Below are positions 183 to 33,121 of a stretch of 59,234 bases of DNA, piece after piece (the first letter of the stretch is position 1; every line of letters starts with the position of its first letter). The translations under genes were made by a program, and so were the position numbers. Where the stretch lies: the NCBI GenBank assembly GCA_009693705.1, contig SHWS01000007.1:1-59234 (forward strand), written 5' to 3'. The notes below the pieces were generated by a model, which was given only the letters and a program-made list of their open reading frames with translations, had not been told where the DNA came from and did no database searches. The DNA comes from Pelagibacteraceae bacterium. Its GTDB lineage: Bacteria > Pseudomonadota > Alphaproteobacteria > Pelagibacterales > Pelagibacteraceae.

Positions 183-1304
183 ATGAAAAAAATAAGTAAA
201 TTACTACTTGCTCTTTCTTTTGTTCTTTCAATAACTTCATCAGCATTTGCAGTAACTGTAGTGTCTTTTGGTGGAGCTTATACAGAAAGTCAAAAATTAG
301 GGTACGGTGATCCTGCAGCAAAAAAACTTGGTATACCTATTGATTGGGTAGACTACACTGGTGGATTATCTGAAATTAAAGCTCAAATAGAAGCTAAGGC
401 AATAACATGGGATATCATTGATCTTTACTCAATGGATACTATTATTGGATGTGACGAAGGACTCTTTCACGAATTTGATTTCGATAAAGATTTTTACCCA
501 GCTCCAGATGGAACTCCAGCAAGCAAAGACTTCTTTACTGACATGCCTTCTAAATGTGCAGTTGGAAACATCTTGTATTCTTGGATCTATGCCTACAATA
601 CAAAAAACGTAAAAGGTACTCCTAAAACTATCGAGGATTTTTTTAATACAAAAAAATTCCCTGGAAAAAGAGGCGTCTATAAAGATGCTTTAGGTAATTT
701 AGAGATTGCTTTAGCCGGTGATGGAATGAAACCAGGAAAAGGTGGAAAAGAAATTTATGAAGCACTTAAAACTCCAGAAGGATTGGAAAGAGCTTTAAAT
801 AAATTTAAAACACTATGCACAGACCCTAAAGGTGGATGTGTATTCTGGAATGCTGGAGCGCAAGCGCCAGAATTTCTTGTAAGCGGTGAGGTAGTTATGT
901 CAACTGGCTGGAATGGAAGATTTTTCAAAGCAGCAATTGTTGAAGGAGCTCCAATCGGCCAAATTTGGGATGGACAAATTCTTGACTATGAATATTTTGC
1001 ATTAGTTAAAGGTGGTCCAAACTATGAAAACGGGGACGCTATGAAAGCTTTAAAAGAAATGACAAGTCCTGAAGGTTTAGCTGGAAGCGCAAAATATATT
1101 GCTTACGCTCCGTGGAGAAAATCTTCAATTAAAATCATGGAAGCTGGAGAGCCTTGGTTTAACGATGGTAAGACTAAAATGGTACCACAAATGCCAACAG
1201 CACCTGCTAATACTAAATCATACATTTTAATGGACGCTCAATTTTGGGCAGATAACAATACTGAACTGCAAGAAAAATGGGAAGCTATGAAAGCTGGTTT
1301 ATAA
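183..1304 (+). CDS. ABC transporter substrate-binding protein, spermidine/putrescine (PotD-like) family
   Basis: A periplasmic solute-binding protein of 373 residues. It starts with a Sec signal peptide: MKK, a hydrophobic stretch to about residue 20, and an AFA cleavage motif. The mature protein begins TVVSFGGAYTES, the usual first strand of family-1 extracellular binding proteins, and contains the hinge-type segments WDIIDLYSMD and YAPWRKSS. It lies directly before two permease genes and after an ATPase end, so it is the receptor of a PotABCD-type importer. The ligand cannot be read from the sequence; polyamines are the usual guess, but related systems take up other amines or amino-acid derivatives. 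The strong ribosome binding site and the hairpin just after the stop suggest it is made in excess over the permeases. Confidence 0.85.
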   Translation: MKKISKLLLALSFVLSITSSAFAVTVVSFGGAYTESQKLGYGDPAAKKLGIPIDWVDYTGGLSEIKAQIEAKAITWDIIDLYSMDTIIGCDEGLFHEFDFDKDFYPAPDGTPASKDFFTDMPSKCAVGNILYSWIYAYNTKNVKGTPKTIEDFFNTKKFPGKRGVYKDALGNLEIALAGDGMKPGKGGKEIYEALKTPEGLERALNKFKTLCTDPKGGCVFWNAGAQAPEFLVSGEVVMSTGWNGRFFKAAIVEGAPIGQIWDGQILDYEYFALVKGGPNYENGDAMKALKEMTSPEGLAGSAKYIAYAPWRKSSIKIMEAGEPWFNDGKTKMVPQMPTAPANTKSYILMDAQFWADNNTELQEKWEAMKAGL

Positions 1305-1340
1305 TTTAGTTTTATAGATAATAATTCTATTATATAATTA

Positions 1341-1370
1341 GGGCGGTTATTTTTATAACCGCCCTTTTTT
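1341..1370 (+). terminator. Rho-independent terminator/attenuator between binding protein and permease genes
   Basis: A perfect 10-bp stem (GGGCGGTTAT at 1341-1350 and ATAACCGCCC at 1355-1364) closes a TTTT loop and is followed by six T residues. It sits 36 bases after the binding-protein stop. The ATG of the next gene starts only three bases after the T tract. The usual role of such a structure in importer operons is partial termination or 3' end stabilisation, so that more receptor than permease is made. Confidence 0.85.
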
Positions 1371-1373
1371 ATT

Positions 1374-2621
1374 ATGAGTACAAAAATAATTTTATCCTCT
1401 GACGGAATACCTTTAGAACAGAGTCTTAAAAAATCTGAGCGAAAAAATAAAATTAGAGCACTGTTATTAGTTGCTCCTTTGTTTTTATTTATTTTAATTA
1501 TATATGTTTTTCCATTGGGAGACATGCTGTTTAGAAGCGTTGATAATCGAATGATCACAGAAATGCTTCCTAATACGTTTAGTGCCTTAGAAAAATGGGA
1601 TGCCAAAGAATTACCTAGTGAAGAAATTTACGAGGCTTTTTATAATGATTTTTATCCTCTTGCGAAAGCTAAAAAATCCGGAAAGCTATTTCAAAGATTA
1701 AATTATGAAAAATCTGGATTTAGCAGTGGTCTTAAAAAAACTAACAAATTGATCTTAGATTTTAAAAAAGAAAATTATAAAGAACAGTTTATGAATACTC
1801 ATGAAATCTGGCGTAGTTTAGATTATTGGATTGCAATAAAAAATACTTCACCAAAATGGACCTACGTTAAATATTTAAAAGGCATTGATTTAACCCTCGA
1901 TCAACAAAAAAAAATTGTTCAAGTTGAAGATGAAAAAAGCATTCATGTAACTCTTTGGCTAAGAACTCTAAAAGTAGCATTTTGGGTTACAGTTTCTTGT
2001 TTTTTACTTTCTTATCCGATTGCGTATTTACTTTCGACCATACCAATGAAATATAGTAATTTATTAATGATATGCGTGTTATTGCCATTTTGGACATCGC
2101 TACTTGTAAGAACATCTAGTTGGATGATTTTGCTTCAGCAAGAAGGACCTATAAATAATTTAATAGTATGGCTCGGCCTTGCTGCAGACGACAATAGACC
2201 CGAGTTAATGCACAATATGATTGGAACATTTATAACCATGTCCCAAATTTTATTACCTTTTATGGTTCTACCTCTTTACAGTGTTATGAAAACTATTCCA
2301 CCAAGCTTGATGAGAGCTGGCAAATCTTTAGGTGGAACTCCACTGATATCTTTTGTAAAAATTTATTTTCCTTTAACGATTCCTGGCATTGGAGCTGGAT
2401 GCTTACTGGTATTTATTTTAGCTATTGGTTATTATATTACACCGGCTCTTGTAGGGGGCGCTAGTGGAAGTTTAATTAGTAACATGATTGCTTATCATAT
2501 GAAAAGTTCGCTAGATTGGGCTTTTGCAGCAGCGCTTGGAACTATGTTATTAGTTGCAGTTTTAACAATATATTGGATTTACCACAAATTAGTTGGAATT
2601 GATAATATTAAACTAGGATAA
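1374..2621 (+). CDS. ABC transporter permease, PotB-like, with a large periplasmic insertion
   Basis: Inner-membrane subunit of the importer, 415 residues against about 280 for PotB. The first membrane helix is at about residues 29-47. A hydrophilic stretch of about 145 residues (48-193), rich in lysine and aromatic residues, follows before the remaining five helices. The cytoplasmic EAA loop that contacts the ATPase is recognisable around AGKSLGGTPLISF and ends LPLTIPGI-like. The ATG lies just after a hairpin and no Shine-Dalgarno is visible, yet no better start exists downstream. The gene ends three bases before the second permease. Long first loops occur in some alphaproteobacterial members of this family; the role is unknown and might be contact with the binding protein. 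Confidence 0.85.
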   Translation: MSTKIILSSDGIPLEQSLKKSERKNKIRALLLVAPLFLFILIIYVFPLGDMLFRSVDNRMITEMLPNTFSALEKWDAKELPSEEIYEAFYNDFYPLAKAKKSGKLFQRLNYEKSGFSSGLKKTNKLILDFKKENYKEQFMNTHEIWRSLDYWIAIKNTSPKWTYVKYLKGIDLTLDQQKKIVQVEDEKSIHVTLWLRTLKVAFWVTVSCFLLSYPIAYLLSTIPMKYSNLLMICVLLPFWTSLLVRTSSWMILLQQEGPINNLIVWLGLAADDNRPELMHNMIGTFITMSQILLPFMVLPLYSVMKTIPPSLMRAGKSLGGTPLISFVKIYFPLTIPGIGAGCLLVFILAIGYYITPALVGGASGSLISNMIAYHMKSSLDWAFAAALGTMLLVAVLTIYWIYHKLVGIDNIKLG

Positions 2622-2624
2622 TTT

Positions 2625-3482
2625 ATGGCGTTACCAAAATATACACCATTACATTACAGAATATGGCATTATTCATATTTAACTATTTGTGGTTTGGTAT
2701 TTTTATTTCTAGTTGCACCTTTGTTTGTAATTTTACCACTTTCATTTAATGCTGAACCGTTCCTTCACTTTTCAGATAAAATGCTAGCATTAGATCCAGA
2801 AGCTTTTTCTTTAAGATGGTATAAGGAAATGATATTTGGCACTAAAAATCCCTGGGGGTTAGCAGCTAAAAATAGTTTTATTATTGCTATCTTTGCAACC
2901 ATTGGTTCAACAATTCTTGGAACATTAGCAGCTATAGGTTTAAGTAGTAGGTACATGCCATACAAAGCTGCATTTATGGCCTTACTAATTTCACCTATGA
3001 TTGTACCGTTAATTATTTCTGGAACTGCAATTTTTTTCTTTATGGCAAAAGTGGGTTTAGCAGCAACACATACTGGAATTGTATTGTCACATATTATTTT
3101 AGGAACACCCTTTGTAGTAATTACAGTTACAGCAACTTTATCGGGCTTTGATCATAGTGTCACAAAAGCCGCCGCTAGTCTTGGAAGCAATCCTGTAAAT
3201 ACATTTATGAAAATCACGTTACCTTTAATTATGCCAGGAGTGATATCCGGAGCTTTATTTGCTTTTGTAACGTCGTTTGATGAAGTTGTAGTTGTATTGT
3301 TTTTAGCGGGTCTTGAAAATACTACGATACCAATTCAAATGTGGGTAGGTTTAAGAGAACAAATAAGCCCAACTATTTTAGCTGTAGCAACATGTTTAAT
3401 TATTTTGTCAACTTTGATTCTTGTGACAGCAGAATTGTTAAGAAGAAGATCTGAAAGATTAAGAGGAATTAAAAGAAACTAA
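2625..3482 (+). CDS. ABC transporter permease, PotC-like
   Basis: Second membrane subunit, 285 residues, the ordinary PotC length. Six hydrophobic segments are visible, with the EAA loop at VTKAAASLGSNPVNTF followed by LPLIMPGV. The ATG is three bases after the stop of the first permease, so the two are co-transcribed and probably translationally coupled. It would form a heterodimeric channel with the long permease. Nothing unusual is seen in its length or motifs. A substrate cannot be assigned from this subunit. Confidence 0.88.
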   Translation: MALPKYTPLHYRIWHYSYLTICGLVFLFLVAPLFVILPLSFNAEPFLHFSDKMLALDPEAFSLRWYKEMIFGTKNPWGLAAKNSFIIAIFATIGSTILGTLAAIGLSSRYMPYKAAFMALLISPMIVPLIISGTAIFFFMAKVGLAATHTGIVLSHIILGTPFVVITVTATLSGFDHSVTKAAASLGSNPVNTFMKITLPLIMPGVISGALFAFVTSFDEVVVVLFLAGLENTTIPIQMWVGLREQISPTILAVATCLIILSTLILVTAELLRRRSERLRGIKRN

Positions 3483-6006: not shown

Positions 6007-6969
6007 ATGAAAAAAGAACGTAACAAAAATCCTATTCAACCGGTCAGTGGAACCAAGGTACCAAGATTTGCCGGTCCATCCACATTTGCAAGATTACCTG
6101 AATTAAGAGATGTTGAAAGTTGTGATGTTGCTATTGTTGGTATTCCTTTTGATGCAGGAACTAGTTATCGACCTGGGGCAAGATTTGGTCCACAAAGTAT
6201 CCGTCAAGCCTCAAGACATTTAAGAACAAATTATCATCCAAGTTATGATGTTGAACCTTTTAAAGTTCAGCAAGTAGCAGATGCGGGGGATATTACCTGC
6301 AATCCATTTAATATTAATGAAGCCATTAAACAAATTGAAGATGGTGCAACCGAATTATTAAATAAAGTAGGAGGAATAATAAGTTTAGGTGGCGATCATA
6401 CGATCGCGCTGCCACTGTTACGAGCAGTTAACAAAGTAAATAATGGCCCAGTGGCCTTAGTTCATTTTGACGCTCATCTTGATACTTGGGATACTTATTT
6501 TGGAGCGCCTTATACTCACGGCACGCCCTTTAGAAGAGCCAGAGAAGAAAACTTATTTTTAGATGACGCCTCAATGCATGTTGGTATTCGAGGTCCTCTT
6601 TATAGTAGAAATGATATTAAAAATGACGAAAGTTTCGGTTTTAAAATAATTCATTGTGATGAATTTCAAACCCAAGGTACAGATAAAATTGCTCAAAGAA
6701 TAAGAGATCGAGTTGGTAATCATGCGTTATATCTTTCAATTGATATTGATGTATTAGATCCGGCCTTTGCCCCAGGAACCGGGACCCCTGAAATTGCTGG
6801 AATGACCACAAGAGAAATTGTCAATGTCCTAAGAGGTTTATCAGGCTTAAATTTAATTTCAGCAGATGTCGTCGAAGTATCACCAGCATATGATCATGCC
6901 GAAATTACTTCTTTAGCGGCAGCAACAATTGTATTTGAATTAACTAATTTATTTGCAAAAAAAAAATAA
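6007..6969 (+). CDS. speB: Agmatinase-family ureohydrolase
   Basis: Cytosolic binuclear manganese enzyme, 320 residues, which hydrolyses a guanidino compound to an amine plus urea. Metal ligands are all present: H131 in GGDHTIALP, D155, H157 and D159 in FDAHLDTWD, and D246 and D248 in SIDIDVLDPAF. The THGTPFRRA segment is typical of agmatinases and guanidinobutyrases rather than arginase. It is followed 15 bases later by an aldehyde dehydrogenase. The substrate could be agmatine (giving putrescine) or a guanidino acid such as guanidinobutyrate; the sequence alone does not decide. A polyamine-type transporter lies upstream. A TATAAT at 5981-5986 may be its -10 box. Confidence 0.82.
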   Translation: MKKERNKNPIQPVSGTKVPRFAGPSTFARLPELRDVESCDVAIVGIPFDAGTSYRPGARFGPQSIRQASRHLRTNYHPSYDVEPFKVQQVADAGDITCNPFNINEAIKQIEDGATELLNKVGGIISLGGDHTIALPLLRAVNKVNNGPVALVHFDAHLDTWDTYFGAPYTHGTPFRRAREENLFLDDASMHVGIRGPLYSRNDIKNDESFGFKIIHCDEFQTQGTDKIAQRIRDRVGNHALYLSIDIDVLDPAFAPGTGTPEIAGMTTREIVNVLRGLSGLNLISADVVEVSPAYDHAEITSLAAATIVFELTNLFAKKK

Positions 6970-6984
6970 AAAATATTTTTCAGA

Positions 6985-8418
6985 ATGTTAGATAAAAAAA
7001 ATTTCTATATTAATGGTGATTGGGTTAAGCCCAAAAGTTCTAATGTAATAAATGTGATTAACCCAGCAACTGAAGAAAATGCTGCAGTCATATCCGTTGG
7101 TGGTAAAAAAGATGTAGATATTGCTGTTAGTGCCGCTAAGAAAGCATTTGAGACTTGGGCATTCTCTTCTAAAGAACAAAGAGTTGAGCTGTTAGAGAAA
7201 GTTTATGAAAATTATAAAAAACGTTGGGATGATATCGCTATTGCTATTAGAGTAGAAATGGGTGCCCCAAAAGATTTTGCAAGTAAACTGCAAGTGAATA
7301 CTGGAGCAAGTCATATAAAATCTTTTATTAAACATTTAAAAAAATTCAATTTTGAAAAACCCTTAGGTGAACATGCTCCAAATCAAAGACTTATATATGA
7401 AGCAAAAGGGGTTTGTGCATTAATTACCCCTTGGAACTGGCCAATGAACCAAGTATGCTTAAAAGTAATTCCAGCTTTAGCTTCTGGATGTACTATGGTT
7501 TTAAAGCCATCTGAGTTAGCACCTTTATCATCAATGATACTTGCTGAAATTATCCATGAAGTAAAATTTCCAAATGGTGTCTTTAACCTTGTTAATGGTG
7601 ATGGTGCCACAACGGGCAATGCTTTAACAAGTCACCCAGATATTAATATGATTTCATTTACTGGATCAACAAGAGCAGGTGCTTTAATTTTACAAAATGC
7701 TGCAAAAGATTTTAAGAGAATAAGTTTAGAACTTGGTGGCAAAGGAGCAAATATTATTTTTAAAGATGCAGATTCTGAGGCGATAGAAAGAGGAGCATTA
7801 AGATGCTTTAGTAATTCGGGTCAATCTTGTAACGCACCAACTAGAATGTTGGTCGAAAAATCAATTTATAATGAAGCTATAGAAAGACTAAAAAAATATA
7901 CCAATGAATTTAAGGTTGGTGATCCTGAAAAAGAAGGAGATCATATTGGACCGGTTATTTCTGAAGCTCAATTTAATAAAATTCAAAACTTAATTCAAAA
8001 AGGCATAGACGAAGGAGCAAATTTAATAGCAGGAGGACTGGGCAAGCCAAAAGGTCTGGAAAAAGGTTACTATGTAAGACCTACAGTTTTTGCTGATGTA
8101 AGCAATGATATGGTAATTGCAAAAACGGAAATTTTTGGACCAGTGTTATCAGTAATACCATTTGAAACAGAGGAACAGGCTATTCAAATTGCAAATGATA
8201 CTCCCTACGGATTAACAAACTATATCCAAACTCAAGATCCAGAAAAAATTAAAAGATTAGTTAGAAAGTTAAGATCTGGAATGGTCGATGTTAATGGAGC
8301 AGGTATTGCTGACGACGCGCCTTTCGGAGGATTTAAACATTCTGGCATTGGGCGTGAAGCTGGAGCTCACGGTCTTGAAGAATTTTTAGAAGTAAAGGCC
8401 GTAGGTGGTTGGAATTAA
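6985..8418 (+). CDS. NAD(P)-dependent aldehyde dehydrogenase
   Basis: Cytosolic aldehyde dehydrogenase of 477 residues, oxidising an aldehyde to the acid. The catalytic Cys (C282 in SNSGQSCNAPTRM), general-base Glu (E249 in LELGGKGA) and oxyanion Asn (N151 in TPWNWP) are all present, as is the FTGST cofactor loop. The gene follows the ureohydrolase by 15 bases and is probably in one operon with it. The pair could oxidise amino- or guanidino-aldehydes formed from polyamines, for example 4-guanidinobutyraldehyde to 4-guanidinobutyrate and then GABA. The pathway is inferred. The 3' end overlaps the convergent TPR gene by four bases. Confidence 0.85.
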   Translation: MLDKKNFYINGDWVKPKSSNVINVINPATEENAAVISVGGKKDVDIAVSAAKKAFETWAFSSKEQRVELLEKVYENYKKRWDDIAIAIRVEMGAPKDFASKLQVNTGASHIKSFIKHLKKFNFEKPLGEHAPNQRLIYEAKGVCALITPWNWPMNQVCLKVIPALASGCTMVLKPSELAPLSSMILAEIIHEVKFPNGVFNLVNGDGATTGNALTSHPDINMISFTGSTRAGALILQNAAKDFKRISLELGGKGANIIFKDADSEAIERGALRCFSNSGQSCNAPTRMLVEKSIYNEAIERLKKYTNEFKVGDPEKEGDHIGPVISEAQFNKIQNLIQKGIDEGANLIAGGLGKPKGLEKGYYVRPTVFADVSNDMVIAKTEIFGPVLSVIPFETEEQAIQIANDTPYGLTNYIQTQDPEKIKRLVRKLRSGMVDVNGAGIADDAPFGGFKHSGIGREAGAHGLEEFLEVKAVGGWN

Positions 8419-25576: not shown

Positions 25577-25618
25577 TATATTTCTTTAATTCATTTATTA
25601 ATGTCTTATATTTTATTA

Positions 25619-26233
25619 ATGAATGATAACAATATTTTAGGGGTAGTGCTAGCAGGAGGACAATCTAAAAGATTTGGTTTAGATAAATCCCAGGTTAGTT
25701 TAAATGGAAAAATATTAATTAATTATATCTTATCAGAGATTCATGAAGAGTTTAGCGAAATTTTAATTGTCGCAAACAACGAAATAGATCATATGAATTC
25801 AAAAAAAATTTCAAAAATAAAAGATTTTAAAAAAGATTTAGGTCCATTAGGGGGTGTTTTAACCGCCATGAAGTGGATTAAACAGTTCAATAAAAATTTT
25901 CAGTGGATCTCTACATTTCCTGCAGATACTCCCTTTTTTAAAAAGAAATTCCTTCAAGATTTTTTAAACAAAATTGAATTTAATGGTAGTAAACTTTTTT
26001 TTATTAAATCAAATAACACTCGTCATAATATATTTGGACTTTGGTCGTTAAAATTATTGGATCAATTAGAAGAGGATTTAATTAACAAAGGAGAGAGAAA
26101 AGTTGAGACTTGGGCTAATAGTATTGGAGTAAAAATTATTAATCTTGATTTTAAAAATTTTGATCCTTTTTTTAATATTAATACAAAAGAAGATTTGGAA
26201 ATCGCAAATAAAATTTTAAATAAAAATGATTAG
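25619..26233 (+). CDS. mobA: Molybdenum cofactor guanylyltransferase MobA
   Basis: Cytosolic nucleotidyltransferase that joins GMP to Mo-molybdopterin, giving the MGD form needed by formate dehydrogenase. The signature VVLAGGQSKRFGLDKS is at the N-terminus and STFPADTPFF carries the metal-binding aspartate. I chose ATG 25619 (MNDNNILGVVLAGG) rather than 25601 because it fits family length and leaves 42 bases to the divergent scaffold gene. It overlaps moeA by 8 bases. It is the only molybdenum-cofactor branch, with moeA, in this window; the earlier moa genes are elsewhere. Confidence 0.88.
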   Translation: MNDNNILGVVLAGGQSKRFGLDKSQVSLNGKILINYILSEIHEEFSEILIVANNEIDHMNSKKISKIKDFKKDLGPLGGVLTAMKWIKQFNKNFQWISTFPADTPFFKKKFLQDFLNKIEFNGSKLFFIKSNNTRHNIFGLWSLKLLDQLEEDLINKGERKVETWANSIGVKIINLDFKNFDPFFNINTKEDLEIANKILNKND

Positions 26234-27467
26234 CTATCAAAAATCTATAAATATTTTAAATAAAGCAAAAATTAAAATTGAGGATGAAATTATTAGCAGC
26301 TCAGAAAGTATAAGTAGAGTAGCCTCAGCAGATGTTCATTCTAAATATAATTACCCATCTGCAAACAATGCTGCATTCGATGGCTATGCTGTTTGTTCGA
26401 ACGATACTAAAAATTTTTCTCAAAAGTTTAAAATTATTGGTTCAATTGCTGCCGGAAACAAACCTTTCAGAAAAAAAATTAAGAAATTAGAAGCAGTTGA
26501 GATTATGACTGGAGGTATTATTCCCAAAGGTTTCGATACAATAATTCCAATAGAACAAATTATTTTTTATCCAAATAAAAAAAATAATAAATACATTTTG
26601 ATTAATAAGAAAATTAAAAAATATAACAATGTTAGATTTTTAGGATCTGATTATAAAATAAATAATTTAGTATTTAAAAAAGGAACTATCATTCAGCCAA
26701 ATCATATTTTAGCTTTAAAAACTCTAGGAATTAATAAGATTAAAGTCAAAAAAAAACCAAATATCTTATTTTTTTCAACTGGTAATGAAATTTCTAATAG
26801 TGTTCATGTTCCAGTCTGGAAAGTAAGAAATTCTATTAGTCATTATATTCATTCTTTAAAAAATAATTTTCTGTTTAATTTTATTAATGGTGGAATTTTA
26901 AAAGATAACCATGAAATTATTTTTAAAAACCATATAGATAAAATGGTTAGTGGTAAAATTGACTTAATTATTACTTCTGGAGCTGTGTCTGCTGGTAAAT
27001 TTGATTTCATACCAAGTGTAATTAAAAAATTTGATCTTTCGAATTATTTTAAAGGTGTTGCGATTAGACCAGGAAAACCCGTTTTATTTGCAAAAATTAA
27101 GGGAAAACATAAAGTTATATTTGGGTTACCAGGTAACCCTATTTCTTCAGCAGCCTGTTTTAGGTTTTTTGTGCATCCTTACTTAGTAAGTTGCCTTGGT
27201 ATAAAAAAAGAGCAACCAATTAAAGCAATTTTAAAAAATAGTTTTACTAAAAAGAAAAATTTTACTCGGTTTATTAAAAGTAAAATTAGCACAACCAATA
27301 ATGGTAAATTAGAAGTAGAAGTTTTATTGGGTCAAGAGTCTTTTAGAATAAAATCATTTGTTAATTCTAATATCTGGACATTATTTCCATCTGGCAAATC
27401 TAACTTTAAAAAAGGTCAAATCATTGACTGTTATTTTCAAAACTCATCCAATAATAATTTAATTTAG
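26226..27467 (+). CDS. moeA: Molybdopterin molybdenumtransferase MoeA
   Basis: A 413-residue MoeA, inserting molybdate into adenylylated molybdopterin. Recognisable segments: NNAAFDGYAVC (N-terminal domain), VEIMTGGIIPKGFDTIIP, TSGAVSAGKFDFIP and FGLPGNPISSAACFR, the last two forming the MoCF-like active domain. It overlaps mobA by 8 bases, and the two are divergent from the formate dehydrogenase operon, whose enzyme they would equip. The C-terminal domain (about 330-410) is complete but lysine-rich and divergent, as expected for this AT-rich genome. Confidence 0.88.
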   Translation: MISYQKSINILNKAKIKIEDEIISSSESISRVASADVHSKYNYPSANNAAFDGYAVCSNDTKNFSQKFKIIGSIAAGNKPFRKKIKKLEAVEIMTGGIIPKGFDTIIPIEQIIFYPNKKNNKYILINKKIKKYNNVRFLGSDYKINNLVFKKGTIIQPNHILALKTLGINKIKVKKKPNILFFSTGNEISNSVHVPVWKVRNSISHYIHSLKNNFLFNFINGGILKDNHEIIFKNHIDKMVSGKIDLIITSGAVSAGKFDFIPSVIKKFDLSNYFKGVAIRPGKPVLFAKIKGKHKVIFGLPGNPISSAACFRFFVHPYLVSCLGIKKEQPIKAILKNSFTKKKNFTRFIKSKISTTNNGKLEVEVLLGQESFRIKSFVNSNIWTLFPSGKSNFKKGQIIDCYFQNSSNNNLI

Positions 27468-27517: not shown

Positions 27518-28423
27518 ATGATTGAAGTACAAGACCGAAAAATAGCAGCGCCAATTGTTTTATTTGCAGGTTTACTTTGGTCGTTTGGTGCTTTGACCAT
27601 TAGATATATGGACGATCCTCATTTAGTACCGTGGCAATATATTTTTACTCGTGGTTTAACTATTTTTATTCTTTTAAATTTATATTTGTATTTTATTGAG
27701 GGTAAAAATTTTTACAAAAATTATTATAAGATTGGATCATCAGGGTTAATAGGTGCTTCTGGTTTAGCAGTTGCAATGATATGTTTTATTTATTCTATTA
27801 CAAATACTAGCGCTGCAGTTACTTTGCTTTGTTTAGCAGCTATGCCTTTTTTTACAGCATTGCTAGCCTTTTTATTTTTAAAGGAAAATATTAGTTTAAA
27901 TGTTTGGATTTCAATTTTTATTGCAACAATCGGATTAATGATTATTGCATTTGACAATACTGAAGAGTCGACATTAATGGGTTTAATTTTTGGTATTTGC
28001 GCATCAATTGGTTTTTCAGTTTATTCTGTAACCCTGAGATGGAGAATTGCAACTCCGAAATTTACAACCGTTGCTTTTGCTGGAATGTTTTGTTTTGTCT
28101 TTGCAGGGATTATGATCTTAGCAAACGGTATGTCATTTTTTTCTACCAGTCACAATAGTCTAATGTTTTCTTTGCATGGAACATTGGTTTGTTTAGGTTT
28201 AATCTTTTATTCAATTGGCTCTAAAGCAATTCCTGCTGCCGAATTAACTTTACTATCTTTAACAGAAGTAATTGGAGGTATTTTTTGGGTATGGCTGCCT
28301 TGGTTTGGTATTAACGAGATACCTTCGACCAATACTATAATTGGCGGGTTTTTCTTATTTATTTCTATTACTTTTTACAGTCTTGTGATGAAATGGAACA
28401 AAAGATACATTGCGTTAAATTAA
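27518..28423 (+). CDS. EamA/DMT-family transporter in the guanidino operon
   Basis: Inner-membrane protein of 301 residues with about ten helices in two EamA repeats. The first repeat begins APIVLFAGLLWSFGALTIRY and the second includes LTEVIGGIFWVWLPWFGINE. It ends 6 bases before the creatinase start, so it is almost certainly co-transcribed with creatinase, the amidinotransferase and the MOSC protein. It may carry creatine, guanidinoacetate, urea or another product, in a direction that cannot be read from the sequence. Confidence 0.83.
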   Translation: MIEVQDRKIAAPIVLFAGLLWSFGALTIRYMDDPHLVPWQYIFTRGLTIFILLNLYLYFIEGKNFYKNYYKIGSSGLIGASGLAVAMICFIYSITNTSAAVTLLCLAAMPFFTALLAFLFLKENISLNVWISIFIATIGLMIIAFDNTEESTLMGLIFGICASIGFSVYSVTLRWRIATPKFTTVAFAGMFCFVFAGIMILANGMSFFSTSHNSLMFSLHGTLVCLGLIFYSIGSKAIPAAELTLLSLTEVIGGIFWVWLPWFGINEIPSTNTIIGGFFLFISITFYSLVMKWNKRYIALN

Positions 28424-28429
28424 AATTTT

Positions 28430-29650
28430 ATGGAACGACCAGATTTTTTTACACTTAAAAATGGAGAAAAAGTAAAACTTCCTTTTACTAAACAAGAGTA
28501 TGATCGAAGAATAAGCAATCTAAGAGTGATTATGGACAAAAATAATTTAGACATGATTATTTTAACTTCCATGCATAATATTGCTTATTATACAGGCTTC
28601 ATTTATTGTTCATTTGGTAGACCTTATGGTTGCATAATTACTCAAGATAAAATCTCAACTATCTCGGCAAATATTGATGCTGGTCAACCATGGCGAAGAT
28701 CTAATTGCGATAATGTAATTTATACGGATTGGAAAAGAGATAATTTTTTAAAAGCCATTGTTTCAATAATCGGTCGAGATCAACCTCCACAAAATATTGG
28801 GCTTGAGTACGATCATATCACTTTAGAAATGAAAGATAAAATAGGTTCTATTTTTACTTTTTCAGTTTTTAGTGATGTTGCTAAAGATTTAATGAATTTA
28901 AGGATGATAAAATCAAATGAAGAAATAGAAATTATAAAAAACGGAGCAAGAATTGCTGACATTGGAGGTGAAGAAATTGTTAAAAATATAAAAGTCGGGA
29001 ATACTGAGATCGAAGTAGCTATTGCTGGGCGCGATCGAATGGAAAGAGAAATAGCCAAAACATATCCAGGGGCAGAATACATGGATACTTGGGTGTGGTT
29101 CCAGTCAGGAATTAATACTGATGGTGCTCACAACCCAAAAACTAATCGAAAATTAGTTTCAGGAGATATTTTATCCTTAAACACTTTCCCAATGATTTCA
29201 GGATATTATACAGCTTTAGAAAGAACTTTATTTTTAAATCATGCAGATGATGATTCTTTAAAAGCATGGGAAGCAAATATTAAAGTACACAAAAGAGGAT
29301 TAGAATTAATTAAACCAGGAATTAAATGTTCAGATATTTGCCACGAACTAAATGAATTGTTTGCTGAACTTGGATATCTGCAGTATCGAACATTTGGTTA
29401 TGGACATTCATTTGGCGTTCTTTCCCATTTTTATGGCAGAGAAGCAGGCTTGGAGCTTAGAGAAGATATTGATACAGTATTAAAAGAAAACATGGTGATA
29501 TCCATGGAACCTATGATAATGATTCCTGAAGGAAAACCAGGAGCAGGCGGATACCGTGAACATGACATATTAGTTATTGGAAAAAATAGTGTAGAAAATA
29601 TTACTAAATTTCCTTTTGGACCCGAACACAATATAATTAAAAGTAATTAA
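28430..29650 (+). CDS. Creatinase (creatine amidinohydrolase), M24 'pita-bread' family
   Basis: A 406-residue pita-bread-fold hydrolase, converting creatine to sarcosine and urea. It aligns along its whole length with the Pseudomonas putida creatinase as I remember it: SFGRPYG, NIDAGQPWRR, GINTDGAHNP, GYYTALERTLF, YGHSFGVLSH and GAGGYREHDI. The residues known to act in that enzyme are present: catalytic His (H234, H232 in P. putida), the guanidinium-binding Glu pair (E264 and E360, for 262 and 358) and Arg R64 and R337 (for 64 and 335). A metal-peptidase M24 role is therefore unlikely. Neighbours are a transporter 6 bases upstream and an amidinotransferase 3 bases downstream. A related guanidino acid as true substrate cannot be excluded. 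Confidence 0.88.
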   Translation: MERPDFFTLKNGEKVKLPFTKQEYDRRISNLRVIMDKNNLDMIILTSMHNIAYYTGFIYCSFGRPYGCIITQDKISTISANIDAGQPWRRSNCDNVIYTDWKRDNFLKAIVSIIGRDQPPQNIGLEYDHITLEMKDKIGSIFTFSVFSDVAKDLMNLRMIKSNEEIEIIKNGARIADIGGEEIVKNIKVGNTEIEVAIAGRDRMEREIAKTYPGAEYMDTWVWFQSGINTDGAHNPKTNRKLVSGDILSLNTFPMISGYYTALERTLFLNHADDDSLKAWEANIKVHKRGLELIKPGIKCSDICHELNELFAELGYLQYRTFGYGHSFGVLSHFYGREAGLELREDIDTVLKENMVISMEPMIMIPEGKPGAGGYREHDILVIGKNSVENITKFPFGPEHNIIKSN

Positions 29651-29653
29651 AAA

Positions 29654-30769
29654 ATGATACCAAATAAAAAAATTGTAAATAGTTGGAATGAGTGGGACCC
29701 GTTAAAACATGTAATTGTTGGAAAAGCAGATGGAACTTGTATTCCAGCGCCCGAACCTGCGCTTGATGCAAAAGTCCCAGAAGATTCAGACATGAGGGGT
29801 TTATTTGGACCAAGAACTCAGGACACGGTTGATAAAGCAAATCAATTACTGGATGATTTTGCAAATATGTTAATAAAAAGAGGCATAAAAGTTGATCGAC
29901 CAACACCAATTAATTTTAATCAAAATACATCAACTCCAGATTGGAAAGCGGAAACAATGTTTGGCTGTATGCCTCCAAGAGATGTTTTATTAACTGTGGG
30001 GAATGAAATATTAGAAGCAACCATGAGTTATCGTTGTCGATGGTTTGAGTACTTATGTTACAGGCCTTTATTAAAAGAGTATTACAATCAAGACAGCAAT
30101 ATGAGGCATGAATCTGCTCCAAAACCAAGATTAACAGACGCTGATTATCGAAAAGATTATTTATCTGATAAAATTGGAATTCAAAAACGATTAGATTGGA
30201 CAGAAAAGAAGTTTTTTGTAACTACCGAAGAAGAGCCTTTGTTTGATGCTGCTGATGTTTTAAGATTTGGAAAAGACTTGGTAGTTCAACACGGATTTAC
30301 AACTAACTTAAAAGGAATTGATTGGTTAAAAAGACATTTTAAAGATCATAGAGTTCATGCGGTCAATTTTCCTGGAGATCCTTATCCAATTCACATCGAT
30401 GCAACGTTCACACCAATTAAAGAAGGATTAATCATTAATAATCCGCAACGAAGTTTGCCAAAAGAACAAAGAAAATTATTTGAAAATAATGGATGGCGAA
30501 TAGTTGACTCAGCTCAACCAGCTCACAACCAACCACCACCTTTATGTTATTCATCCGTTTGGCTGTCGATGAATGTCTTAGTTCTTGATCCAAAAACAGT
30601 TTGTGTAGAAAAAAGTGAAGTTTATCAAGCTGAACAATTAGATAAATTAGGCATGGAAGTAATACCAGTTGAACTTAGAGATGCTTATGCATTTGGAGGC
30701 GGGTTACATTGTTGCACTGCAGATGTATATCGTGAAGGGGAATTGAAGGATTATTTTCCAAAACAATAA
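29654..30769 (+). CDS. Glycine amidinotransferase-like enzyme (AGAT/StrB family)
   Basis: A 371-residue amidinotransferase. Members move the amidino group of arginine to an amine such as glycine, giving guanidinoacetate and ornithine, or to aminocyclitols in antibiotic pathways. The catalytic triad can be placed: Asp in LFDAADVLRFGKD, His in YPIHIDATF, and Cys C353 in GGGLHCCTADVYREG. The N-terminal WNEWDPLKHVIVGKADG is also typical. It follows creatinase by three bases. Glycine is the likeliest acceptor by resemblance, but the pair's purpose is unclear because no guanidinoacetate methyltransferase is seen; it might also work toward arginine and glycine. Confidence 0.83.
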   Translation: MIPNKKIVNSWNEWDPLKHVIVGKADGTCIPAPEPALDAKVPEDSDMRGLFGPRTQDTVDKANQLLDDFANMLIKRGIKVDRPTPINFNQNTSTPDWKAETMFGCMPPRDVLLTVGNEILEATMSYRCRWFEYLCYRPLLKEYYNQDSNMRHESAPKPRLTDADYRKDYLSDKIGIQKRLDWTEKKFFVTTEEEPLFDAADVLRFGKDLVVQHGFTTNLKGIDWLKRHFKDHRVHAVNFPGDPYPIHIDATFTPIKEGLIINNPQRSLPKEQRKLFENNGWRIVDSAQPAHNQPPPLCYSSVWLSMNVLVLDPKTVCVEKSEVYQAEQLDKLGMEVIPVELRDAYAFGGGLHCCTADVYREGELKDYFPKQ

Positions 30770-30777
30770 TTTATAAG

Positions 30778-31554
30778 ATGAATTGTACTATTTCATCGCT
30801 CCATTACTCGCCAATTAAATCATTATCTTTTCAACAAGCAAAATTCTGTTTAATAAAAAAAAATTTAGGAATTGTTAATGATAGAATTTTTGCTTTTTCT
30901 AGAAATCTCAAATTAGATAAAGCTAAAGCGATCGCAAAAAATCCACATCAAAGACATTTAATAAATTTTCTAACCCTTAAAAATTCACCCAGCTTAAATA
31001 AATATAATTTTGTTTATGAAAAAGGTTTAATTACTCTTTTTTTAAAAAATAAAAACATCATTTCAATTGAAACAGGCAAACCAAAAGAAACCATTAAACT
31101 TTCAAATAAATTATTAGAAATTGAAAAAACATTAATTGGACCAATTTATTTACTAAAAAACCTTAAATTTCCATTTTTTGATACCACTTATTCAAACAGT
31201 GTTTTAAACACCATTTCATTGATAAATTTAAACAGTATTAAAGACTTTGAAAAAAAAATTAATCGTAAAATTGAATTTGAGCGTTTTAGAGGAAATATTT
31301 ACATCAAAGGAATTGACGCTTTTGAAGAAAGGAAATGGATTAATAAAATTATTAAAATTAATAAAATTGAATTTAAAGTTTTAAGGCATATTCCAAGATG
31401 CTCTGCCACCAACCTCAAAGTTAATTCAGTTGAACAAGATATCAATCTTCCTTTAAAGTTAAAAAAAACCTATGGCCATATCGATATGGGTATTTATTTA
31501 AGTCCTTTAAACAATGGTAAAATATCTTTAAATGACAAAATAACCTTAGGTTAA
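30778..31554 (+). CDS. MOSC-domain protein, mARC/YcbX-like molybdenum enzyme without ferredoxin domain
   Basis: A 258-residue protein with an N-terminal MOSC_N beta barrel (LHYSPIKSLSFQQ and NDRIFAFSR) and a C-terminal MOSC domain (FERFRGNIYIKG, then HIPRCSATNLKV). The Cys (C208) in PRCSAT is where mARC proteins bind the molybdenum cofactor. E. coli YcbX has an additional C-terminal 2Fe-2S domain, absent here, so an external electron donor would be needed. mARC-type enzymes reduce N-hydroxylated amines, amidines and guanidines. It lies 8 bases after the amidinotransferase in the same operon, which makes an N-oxygenated guanidino substrate an appealing but untested idea. It overlaps the convergent small gene by four bases. 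Confidence 0.78.
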   Translation: MNCTISSLHYSPIKSLSFQQAKFCLIKKNLGIVNDRIFAFSRNLKLDKAKAIAKNPHQRHLINFLTLKNSPSLNKYNFVYEKGLITLFLKNKNIISIETGKPKETIKLSNKLLEIEKTLIGPIYLLKNLKFPFFDTTYSNSVLNTISLINLNSIKDFEKKINRKIEFERFRGNIYIKGIDAFEERKWINKIIKINKIEFKVLRHIPRCSATNLKVNSVEQDINLPLKLKKTYGHIDMGIYLSPLNNGKISLNDKITLG

Positions 31555-31778
31555 TTTGGATTTTTTTTTATAAATTCTATATATTTTACTACTTCATCAA
31601 ATTTTTCATCGGGAATGTCTTTGTAACTAGCATTAAATTTTTCTTTAACGCATATAGCAACATGGGCATAGGGGTTACGACCTTTTGGATGATTTGGATG
31701 ATCTGGTAACTGACCTTGCAAATAATCACCAGCTTCCTGAATTAATTTCCAGAGTTTGCTTGCGTTTTCTTTATTCAC
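31551..31778 (-). CDS. Small conserved-looking protein, ORF6C-like C-terminus
   Basis: A 75-residue protein of unknown function. It has no signal peptide or membrane segment and is mixed in charge. The second half (YAHVAICVKEKFNASYKDIP, then a short helix) resembles the ORF6C/Kil-like helical segment found at the end of some phage regulators ('..FGVSSYKDIP...'), but no N-terminal DNA-binding domain is present. It overlaps the MOSC gene by four bases tail to tail, and codon use looks normal for this genome. It may be a true small gene; the function is unassigned. Confidence 0.6.
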   Translation of the reverse strand: MNKENASKLWKLIQEAGDYLQGQLPDHPNHPKGRNPYAHVAICVKEKFNASYKDIPDEKFDEVVKYIEFIKKNPN

Positions 31779-31972: not shown

Positions 31973-33121
31973 ATGAGCATGAGAACGGAGGCCTTTGAAC
32001 ATCTTAATAATTTTTCTGAAAATTATTTAAGTAAATACTCAAGTGATAGAAATTTTGATTTTGGTAAAGACAACAGAACAAATACTAGTTGTTTATCCAA
32101 ATACCTAACTCACCGGGTTATTGATGAGTTAGAGGTGATAAAATCTGCCCATTCTAAATACTCCTATTTAACTATTGAAAAATTTATCCAGGAAGTATTT
32201 TGGCGTACCTACTGGAAGGGTTGGTTAGAATTAAGACCAAGGGTTTGGAAAGCATACCGAGAAGACTTAGTCAAATTAGAGGAATATAAAAAAAATATTA
32301 ATTACCAAAATTCAATTAATGCAAAAACAACTGTTGAATGCTTTAATGATTGGGCACAAGAGTTAAAAGAGACAGGATATTTGCATAATCATGCACGAAT
32401 GTGGTTTGCAAGTATTTGGATTTTCACTCTAAAACTTCCTTGGCAATTAGGGGCTGATTTTTTTCTAAAACATTTACTGGATGGTGATGCTGCCTCAAAT
32501 ACTTTAAGTTGGCGTTGGGTTGCGGGACTTCAAACAAAAGGCAAGCATTACCTTGCAACTAGTTGGAATATTAATAAATTTTCAGCTAAAAAATATAACA
32601 ATTTAAAATTAAATGAAAACACAAGTCCAATATTTGAAAGTGAAAATTTTACCCAAGTTCCCATTCACTTTGATAACCTAGTTAATGAAAATTCTTTATT
32701 CTTAATACACAATTTAGATAGTTGCTATTTATTAAAACATAAACAAAAAACTTTTAACAATTACGGTCTATTTGATTTTAATGATGTTTTAGATAAAGAA
32801 AATTATTCAAAAAACGTATTAGATTTTAAAGCAAAAATAAATTTAGAAATTTTAGAACAAATAAAAAGTGACTTTGGTGCTAATATGATTTTAAAAAATT
32901 CTGATGATCTTTTTAAAGTTATTAAAGAGAAAAAAATTGAACACGTGATTATGCCGTATCTTACTTGTGGTTATGAAAATGATTTCATCAGTCAATTAAA
33001 AGATAAGGTTAAAATTTGCTATTTAGCAAGGGATTATGATCAATTTTGTTTTCCTTTTTCAACCAAGGGTTTTTTTGGCTTTAAAGATCAAATTCATAAA
33101 ATTCTAACAAAATTTTTATAA
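31973..33121 (+). CDS. Photolyase/cryptochrome-related FAD-binding protein with apparent swapped domain order
   Basis: A 382-residue protein. Residues about 20-200 match the helical FAD-binding half of photolyases and cryptochromes: FIQEVFWRTYWKGWLE, YLHNHARMWFAS, WQLGADFFLKHLLDGDAA and SWRWVAGLQTKG (the W/RW..G..T segment). In standard photolyases this half is C-terminal, after an alpha/beta antenna domain. Here it comes first, and residues about 225-382 follow with strand-helix alternation (SLFLIHNL, NMILKN, IEHVIMPYL, VKICYLAR) ending in YDQFCFPFSTKGFFGFKDQI, which looks like the end of that antenna domain. DNA-repair activity is uncertain. A promoter is not obvious; the gap upstream is 194 bases. 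Confidence 0.72.
   Translation: MSMRTEAFEHLNNFSENYLSKYSSDRNFDFGKDNRTNTSCLSKYLTHRVIDELEVIKSAHSKYSYLTIEKFIQEVFWRTYWKGWLELRPRVWKAYREDLVKLEEYKKNINYQNSINAKTTVECFNDWAQELKETGYLHNHARMWFASIWIFTLKLPWQLGADFFLKHLLDGDAASNTLSWRWVAGLQTKGKHYLATSWNINKFSAKKYNNLKLNENTSPIFESENFTQVPIHFDNLVNENSLFLIHNLDSCYLLKHKQKTFNNYGLFDFNDVLDKENYSKNVLDFKAKINLEILEQIKSDFGANMILKNSDDLFKVIKEKKIEHVIMPYLTCGYENDFISQLKDKVKICYLARDYDQFCFPFSTKGFFGFKDQIHKILTKFL

What the first reader, a model, noticed from the sequence alone, without database searches (positions are those of the whole stretch)
27518..31554. Operon joining a transporter, creatinase, an amidinotransferase and a mARC-like molybdenum protein
Four genes with gaps of 6, 3 and 8 bases encode an EamA transporter, a creatinase with all known catalytic residues (R64, H234, E264, R337, E360), an AGAT-like amidinotransferase with its Cys/His/Asp set, and a MOSC protein with the mARC molybdenum Cys (C208). 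Established knowledge: creatinase releases urea and sarcosine, AGAT handles guanidinoacetate, and mARC enzymes reduce N-hydroxylated guanidines. Putting all three together suggests a guanidino-compound pathway, perhaps including N-hydroxyguanidines, that I do not recognise as described. No guanidinoacetate methyltransferase is seen, so ordinary creatine synthesis is not the explanation.
Basis: partly seen in the sequence, partly recalled or inferred. Interest (0 to 1): 0.75.

Follow-up and report, generated by a model that had tools for sequence, protein, structure and literature searches.

The report
Ocean-bacterium creatine and guanidinoacetate scavenging operon
In this ocean bacterium a membrane transporter gene, a creatine-splitting enzyme and an enzyme that moves guanidino groups share one operon; the enzyme pair recurs in other marine bacteria and may turn animal or algal guanidino compounds into glycine, while the fourth gene, a molybdenum protein, looks like a chance neighbour.

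Summary
In detail: four co-directional ORFs with gaps of 6, 3 and 8 bases, namely an EamA transporter, a genuine creatinase, an AGAT-type amidinotransferase and a mARC-fold MOSC protein. The four-gene unit is not conserved. In 44 same-genus genomes viewed at the locus, MOSC follows AGAT only here; elsewhere it sits beside an Ehu-type (ectoine) transporter in 11 of 14 loci. The conserved unit is EamA-AGAT (69 of 72 genomes; two misses are contig ends, one is real). Creatinase is a cassette exactly between them in 26 of the 69, and an L-threonine-aldolase-type gene follows in 24 of 44. AGAT and creatinase are also neighbours in SAR116 and roseobacters, in two other orientations, and co-occur in 7 of 8 genomes with a close AGAT in a class sample against 39 of 377 others. 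Best reading: a guanidino-scavenging module that yields glycine. Creatinase gives sarcosine and urea; AGAT exchanges amidino groups between guanidinoacetate or arginine and glycine or ornithine. AGAT's direction and EamA's cargo are inferred. SAR11 creatine use was already predicted in print; my searches found no paper on this AGAT or the pairing. The N-hydroxyguanidine/mARC idea is not supported.

The parts
27518..28423 (+). EamA/DMT-family transporter, 301 aa; cargo unknown
   Evidence: Pfam EamA; directly upstream of AGAT, or of creatinase-AGAT, in 69 of 72 same-genus genomes with AGAT
28430..29650 (+). creatinase (creatine amidinohydrolase), 406 aa; variable cassette between EamA and AGAT
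   Evidence: phmmer 1chm 541 bits over residues 4-404; active-site residues invariant; found in 28 of 150 relatives, own genome included
29654..30769 (+). AGAT-type amidinotransferase, 371 aa
   Evidence: phmmer human AGAT 286 bits, SxtG 221, HsvA 204, StrB1 176; predicted fold closest to human AGAT, TM 0.89-0.90, 39-40% identity; found in 116 of 150 relatives, own genome included
30778..31554 (+). MOSC protein with mARC-like predicted fold, 258 aa; judged not part of the guanidino module
   Evidence: Pfam MOSC; predicted fold closest to human mARC1; adjacent to AGAT in 1 of 44 genomes
25601..26233 (+). mobA, Moco guanylyltransferase; upstream Moco module, variable at this locus
26226..27467 (+). 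moeA, molybdopterin molybdotransferase, ends 50 bases before EamA
31551..31778 (-). 75-aa conserved ORF, convergent, at the downstream edge of the locus
   Evidence: no Pfam or NCBIfam match for its relative in L044
39951..42386 (-). flavoprotein of the dimethylglycine/sarcosine dehydrogenase type, a possible sink for sarcosine; not in the operon
   Evidence: NCBIfam soxA-family 167 bits and GcvT 162 bits, both under their cut-offs; name inferred

Best explanation
A guanidino-compound scavenging module that yields glycine. Creatinase hydrolyses creatine to sarcosine and urea (strongly supported by sequence); sarcosine is then oxidised to glycine by flavoenzymes that SAR11 is known to have (inferred). 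The AGAT-type enzyme moves an amidino group through its active-site Cys between arginine/ornithine and glycine/guanidinoacetate (strongly supported as chemistry, acceptor not proved). I think it mainly runs from guanidinoacetate plus ornithine to glycine plus arginine, so that creatine and its demethyl precursor both feed the glycine pool and guanidinoacetate nitrogen is kept as arginine (inferred). EamA moves a substrate or product (inferred, cargo untested). Urea from creatine is probably lost, since neither urease nor allophanate hydrolase was found in this genome. MOSC is a bystander.
For: Families and residues. EamA-AGAT distance 6-57 bases in 43 genomes without creatinase and 1230-1246 in 26 with it. 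AGAT-creatinase adjacency outside SAR11: 10 of 80 named loci within 2 kb, 8 convergent and 2 divergent, plus G524. Class sample: creatinase in 7 of 8 genomes with a close AGAT ortholog against 39 of 377 others, Fisher p 1.7e-6; without SAR11 4 of 5, p 6e-4. Glycine- or serine-linked neighbours of AGAT: L-threonine-aldolase-type gene next in 24 of 44, homocysteine-methyltransferase (BhmT-type) and DAO-GcvT genes in G004, serC and a serA-type gene in G431. 300-flap DPYPI in 80 of 80 named loci. Amidinotransfer is reversible, and guanidinoacetate is a donor for human AGAT and CyrA (PMC4887976, passages). Urease alpha not found in G000, strong matches in only 3 of 28 creatinase genomes; allophanate hydrolase over cut-off in 0 of 101 relatives.
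Against: Direction and acceptor of AGAT are not fixed by sequence: the flap DPYPI differs from human DPNPM, CyrA DIFPS and AmtA DMHPM. The two enzymes usually live apart: AGAT is commoner than creatinase in the relatives (116 vs 28 of 150), and in the class sample 39 of 46 creatinase genomes lack a close AGAT. In 3 of the 4 non-SAR11 class genomes with both, the genes are on different contigs. Some AGAT contexts are not glycine-linked: ectoine-utilisation-like operon (G304), DegT aminotransferase (SAR116), solitary in family f2. Co-occurrence tests ignore shared ancestry. Free guanidinoacetate in seawater was not documented here.
Confidence: 0.45

Rival explanations
1. AGAT runs forward: arginine plus glycine give ornithine and guanidinoacetate, which EamA exports or the cell keeps as a solute; where creatinase is present it hydrolyses creatine (or slowly guanidinoacetate), closing an arginase-like bypass.
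For: EamA/DMT proteins are often exporters (recalled); AGAT beside serC and a serA-type gene could get its glycine acceptor there; the forward reaction is the textbook one (PMC4887976).
Against: SAR11 is known for glycine-serine auxotrophy (title of Tripp 2009 seen in the reference list of PMC3160333; details recalled), so spending glycine is odd; the creatinase keeps the residues of a creatine enzyme.
Confidence: 0.27
2. AGAT uses creatine itself as amidino donor: creatine plus ornithine give sarcosine plus arginine, a nitrogen-saving alternative to creatinase.
For: Recurrent pairing with creatinase; no urease and no allophanate hydrolase over cut-off in this genome, so creatinase alone would waste the urea nitrogen.
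Against: I recall no AGAT that uses creatine well; in the relatives most AGAT genomes have no creatinase (88 of 116).
Confidence: 0.12
3. One reading: a guanidino pathway that includes reduction of N-hydroxyguanidines by the mARC-like MOSC protein.
For: MOSC has the mARC-like fold and Cys and is co-directional, 8 bases after AGAT.
Against: Adjacent in 1 of 44 genomes; beside an Ehu-type transporter in 11 of 14 loci; follows the Moco genes of the locus (MOSC in 10 of 15 genomes with moeA there, 0 of 11 without, one of the 11 not searched for MOSC).
Confidence: 0.03
4. The neighbours are a by-product of a compact genome and an insertion-prone locus between the c2 and c3 genes; AGAT and creatinase have unrelated roles.
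For: The locus also takes up mobA-moeA, the formate dehydrogenase genes, the aldolase and MOSC; many genomes have only one of the two enzymes.
Against: The same pair is adjacent in SAR116 and roseobacters in other orientations, and co-occurs unlinked in G093.
Confidence: 0.13

Closest known systems
Creatinase (creatine amidinohydrolase), PDB 1chm (Pseudomonas putida, organism recalled)
   Same: Full-length match, 541 bits, active-site residues kept
   Different: Operon partners are EamA and AGAT
L-arginine:glycine amidinotransferase (AGAT, GATM), human, PDB 1jdw/4jdw
   Same: Fold, catalytic Cys-His-Asp and guanidinium-binding Asp positions, 39-40% identity
   Different: Flap DPYPI instead of DPNPM; paired with a creatine-degrading enzyme; a GAMT partner was not looked for
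CyrA, SxtG, HsvA, StrB1, AmtA amidinotransferases
   Same: Same superfamily and mechanism
   Different: SxtG, HsvA and StrB1 score lower than human AGAT; CyrA and AmtA were compared only by flap letters quoted in PMC4887976
Creatine-to-glycine catabolism predicted for SAR11 and for AEGEAN-169
   Same: SAR11 creatinase cluster SAR2086 and creatine-to-glycine use (PMC3686209, passages); Ca. Indicimonas (PMC11366302, passages)
   Different: 'amidinotransferase' has 0 occurrences in the main text of the first, 'amidino' 0 in the second
mARC / MOSC molybdenum proteins
   Same: MOSC protein has a mARC-like predicted fold and the Cys
   Different: Not a conserved part of this operon

Membership tests
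creatinase | Creatinase_N plus M24 domains, and a full-length match to solved creatinases rather than prolidase or ectoine hydrolase | tested here: met
   541, 526 and 497 bits to three creatinases; best prolidase 92 bits, ectoine hydrolase 45
creatinase | active-site set F62, R64, H234, Y260, E264, R337, E360, H378 (roles recalled) | tested here: met
   present in the window protein; invariant in 36 of 36, or in the 35 of 36 with letters there
creatinase | hydrolyses creatine to sarcosine and urea | not testable with these tools
   needs an assay
AGAT | closest solved relative and fold is AGAT | tested here: met
AGAT | catalytic Cys-His-Asp and substrate residues D170, D305, R322, S355 (roles recalled) | tested here: met
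AGAT | 300-flap residues N300 and M302 of the human enzyme | tested here: not met
   Y244 and I246; the flap also differs in CyrA, which uses glycine (PMC4887976), so it does not decide membership
AGAT | glycine is the acceptor | not testable with these tools
   needs an assay
creatine biosynthesis (AGAT plus GAMT) | GAMT in the genome | not tested
   no GAMT query or model was run
phosphagen system | ATP:guanido phosphotransferase (PF00217) | tested here: inconclusive
   0 of 101 genomes, but none of the 14 control genomes rang either
mARC-like MOSC protein | MOSC domain, mARC-like two-part fold, Mo-binding Cys | tested here: met
   Pfam MOSC; fold best match mARC1, TMq 0.62-0.72 but rmsd 6.5-13.9; Cys; sequence match weak, 23 bits; Mo binding not tested
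   1 of 44 genomes

The most novel reading that the evidence does not exclude
The SAR11/roseobacter AGAT is a catabolic amidino-salvage enzyme: it takes the amidino group of guanidinoacetate, and perhaps creatine, onto ornithine, recovering arginine and releasing glycine or sarcosine without passing through urea. AGAT would then have a degradative role in abundant ocean bacteria, the opposite of its creatine-making role in animals.
Probability: 0.35. Interest if true: 0.72.

Novelty: new variant of a known kind. Interest (0 to 1): 0.5.

Why it matters
SAR11 and roseobacters are among the most abundant surface-ocean bacteria, and glycine supply is a known constraint on SAR11 (recalled). A widespread AGAT for which my searches found no assigned role, tied to creatine breakdown, points to guanidino compounds as a nitrogen and glycine source in the sea. 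It can be tested directly in roseobacters that carry the adjacent pair.

Tried and rejected
Riboswitch control: no Rfam family reached its gathering score on the window and four other loci. Promoter and terminator scan: 36 and 2 sites against 37.9 and 2.6 in shuffles, uninformative. Urea use: no urease alpha match in G000 at E 0.001; the allophanate hydrolase model matched 95 of 101 genomes weakly, as it did 13 of 14 controls, and 0 of 101 over cut-off. Phosphagen kinase: silent, controls silent too. Arginase family: 81 of 101 genomes; the window member (6007-6969) is closest to guanidinopropionase and guanidinobutyrase and is not part of the operon. Phage carriage: of 32 viral-contig stretches with a pattern match one encodes an AGAT relative (73%), beside an ORF that reads by eye as an NRPS adenylation domain; not pursued. 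The AGAT acceptor cannot be deduced from residues. The first AGAT tree left some creatinase-adjacent SAR11 rows unlabelled; relabelled (36 of 135 rows, 11 changes, at least 4 forced by starred branches; some may be losses).

Limits of the counts. The 44 genomes are not a random draw: the best-matching loci plus contexts I chose, 44 of the 74 same-genus genomes with AGAT known to me (72, plus G350 and G440). In one search the Moco state could be read in 26 of 45 genomes; G350 was counted as lacking MOSC although the MOSC search did not include it, so 0 of 10 is the safer figure. 'moeA absent' means absent at this locus. Three MOSC genomes without AGAT (G055, G066, G072) are outside that table. 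Some named loci are short contigs, so 10 of 80 is a lower bound. The four class genomes with only distant AGAT-like genes (31-38%) are counted among the 377; one of the four (G327) has creatinase.

Literature: searches (open-access PMC only). 'SAR11 amidinotransferase' and 'creatinase amidinotransferase operon' gave 0 papers; 'amidinotransferase Roseobacter' gave one saxitoxin review (listing only); one search listed 25 of 121. Passages seen, not whole texts: PMC3686209, PMC4887976, PMC3684758, PMC3160333, PMC11366302, PMC11360552. Wawrik 2017 on creatine use in seawater was seen only as a reference. Absence from print is claimed for these searches only.
Full report
Observation. The own assembly G000 has 1.29 Mb in 49 contigs and is 97% complete. 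The gene row does not start at EamA: mobA and moeA precede it on the same strand, and a convergent 75-aa ORF ends it.

What the proteins are. The creatinase matches three solved creatinases at 541, 526 and 497 bits, against 92 bits for the best prolidase, and keeps the active site. The amidinotransferase is closest to human AGAT by sequence (286 bits; SxtG 221, HsvA 204, StrB1 176) and by predicted fold (mean pLDDT 84.8; TM 0.89-0.90, 39-40% identity). Its 300-flap reads DPYPI, identical in 80 of 80 named loci of other bacteria. Of 53 distinct AGAT-like rows from the SAR11 order, 50 are close orthologs: 47 read DPYPI, one DAYPI and two DPFPT; the other three are 31-32% paralogs with another flap and Glu at the D254 position. 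One conserved substrate is therefore likely, not necessarily the human one. The MOSC protein is weak by sequence (23 bits to mARC1), but its predicted model (pLDDT 84.7) is closest to mARC1 (TMq 0.62-0.72, with large rmsd) ahead of YuaD (0.41) and YiiM (0.32).

What is conserved. In the same 150 relatives (own genome included) AGAT is found in 116 (27 of 34 high-quality genomes), EamA relatives in 117, creatinase in 28 and MOSC in 14, one of them outside the order. EamA matches in the second family are 43-47% identical and lie on other contigs or far away. Of 72 same-genus genomes with AGAT, 69 have EamA co-directional and directly upstream: 43 at 6-57 bases and 26 at 1230-1246 bases, the room taken by creatinase. 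Of the other three, two have contigs that begin inside creatinase (G028) or AGAT (G011), and in G004 the two genes are on different contigs. Creatinase is thus a removable cassette in an EamA-AGAT operon. In 44 chosen genomes viewed gene by gene, a Beta_elim_lyase aldolase follows AGAT in 24 and MOSC in 1, this window. One such aldolase matches solved 'Aldolase' 1v72 and L-threonine aldolases at 357-237 bits; its NCBIfam matches (GntG 72 bits, L-threonine aldolase 54) are under cut-off.

MOSC belongs elsewhere. I viewed 14 SAR11 MOSC loci (window, L036, L037, L038, L046, L072, L095, L180-L186). In 11 it is beside a four-gene ABC transporter; in the one set tested (L182) the subunits pass NCBIfam cut-offs for EhuA, EhuC and EhuD, and the binding protein misses EhuB (159 vs 191 bits). 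MOSC was present in 10 of 15 genomes with moeA at the locus and 0 of 11 without (p 7e-4; one of the 11 not searched for MOSC). Three MOSC genomes show neither AGAT nor creatinase. This speaks against the N-hydroxyguanidine idea.

The AGAT-creatinase link. Creatinase lies within 2 kb in 10 of 80: 2 divergent (SAR116) and 8 convergent. G524, whose AGAT groups with the SAR116 ones, adds a divergent case; SAR11 pairs are co-directional. Within 6 kb creatinase was the commonest non-overlapping neighbour family, 10 loci at a median of 133 bases; the next had 9 at a median of 1.6 kb, probably shared synteny. Seven of the eight convergent creatinases are 71-74% identical to the SAR116 one and 57-60% to the window's; the eighth (L125) is 52-53% from both. 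With three orientations, the pairs were probably put together more than once. On the AGAT tree the label needs 11 changes, at least 4 forced by well-supported branches, though losses count too. In a class sample of 385 genomes close AGAT orthologs (60% identity or more) occur in 8 and creatinase in 46; 7 of the 8 have creatinase against 39 of 377 (p 1.7e-6; without SAR11 4 of 5, p 6e-4). Only G524 of those four non-SAR11 genomes has the genes adjacent; in G431, G446 and G509 they are on different contigs. In the 150 relatives all 28 creatinase genomes have AGAT, against 88 of 122 others (p 7e-4). These tests ignore shared ancestry and draft gaps, and each enzyme often occurs without the other: 88 of 116 AGAT genomes lack creatinase in the relatives, and 39 of 46 creatinase genomes lack a close AGAT in the class.

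Other AGAT settings. G004: homocysteine-methyltransferase family (BhmT-type), DAO-GcvT dehydrogenase, AGAT, methyltransferase, Rieske protein related to glycine betaine monooxygenase. G431: AGAT, serC, serA-type gene. G304: AGAT before an ectoine-utilisation-like operon. SAR116 and G524: a DegT aminotransferase follows in three loci. G025 and G073 second copies: AGAT, then an ORF that reads by eye as another DMT permease and an oxygenase. Family f2: alone between genes that look like cell-wall genes and a hydroxylase (names by eye). Some, not all, are glycine or serine settings.

Mechanism. Well supported: creatinase chemistry, amidinotransfer chemistry, the EamA-(creatinase)-AGAT unit, and exclusion of MOSC from it. 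Inferred: that creatine is hydrolysed for its sarcosine; that AGAT works towards glycine and arginine; that EamA carries a substrate or product. Urease alpha was not found in G000, and 3 of 28 creatinase genomes have a strong match (E below 1e-50), so urea seems not to be the prize. Amidinotransfer is described as reversible, with guanidinoacetate a donor for human AGAT and CyrA (PMC4887976), so the catabolic direction is chemically ordinary. The forward direction remains a serious rival.

Against print. Creatine-to-glycine use in SAR11 is already proposed (PMC3686209, passages), and creatine use in Ca. Indicimonas of AEGEAN-169 (PMC11366302, passages). The SAR11 one-carbon paper holds no word beginning with 'creatin' in its main text (PMC3160333). 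An ocean virus survey describes GATM and GAMT as creatine biosynthesis and reports GAMT in Arctic viruses (PMC11360552, passages). Searches for SAR11 or roseobacter amidinotransferase found nothing on point. What looks new is the AGAT pairing and its spread, not creatinase itself.

Noticed in passing
window 6007-6969 (+), with 183-3482 upstream and 6985-8418 downstream: Ureohydrolase closest to 3-guanidinopropionase and guanidinobutyrase (276 and 264 bits), between ORFs that read by eye as an ABC transporter and an aldehyde dehydrogenase; arginase-family genes occur in 81 of 101 relatives. NCBIfam calls it agmatinase. Possibly a second guanidino-acid route in the same window.
   Followed up: partly
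L049:5000-13513 (G004): AGAT inside a cluster with a homocysteine-methyltransferase-family gene, a DAO-GcvT dehydrogenase, a methyltransferase, a Rieske oxygenase related to GbcA, a SET-domain protein and a DddP-like M24 protein; EamA and the aldolase stay at the usual locus without AGAT (L050).
   Followed up: partly
L182:7297-12085 and 10 other loci: MOSC beside an Ehu-type transporter and, in 9 of 14 MOSC loci, a divergent PhyH-type protein; the one tested (L182) matches chlorinating enzymes weakly (77 bits, cut-off 226). A variable island of unknown role.
   Followed up: partly
L055:509-8879 and L056:1816-8968: Second AGAT copies (74-75% identical to the window protein) head another operon that reads by eye as DMT permease, 2OG-Fe oxygenase, luciferase-like monooxygenase, ThDP enzyme and aldehyde dehydrogenase.
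   Followed up: no
L198:1-2459 (IMG/VR contig): AGAT relative (73%) directly after an adenylation-domain-like ORF on a contig labelled viral; may be a mislabelled bacterial natural-product cluster.
   Followed up: no
window 31551-31778 (-): Conserved 75-aa ORF at the downstream edge of the locus in many genomes; its L044 relative has no Pfam or NCBIfam match.
   Followed up: no
window 31973-33121 (+): 382-aa photolyase/cryptochrome-like protein; Pfam matches only the FAD-binding domain of photolyase.
   Followed up: no
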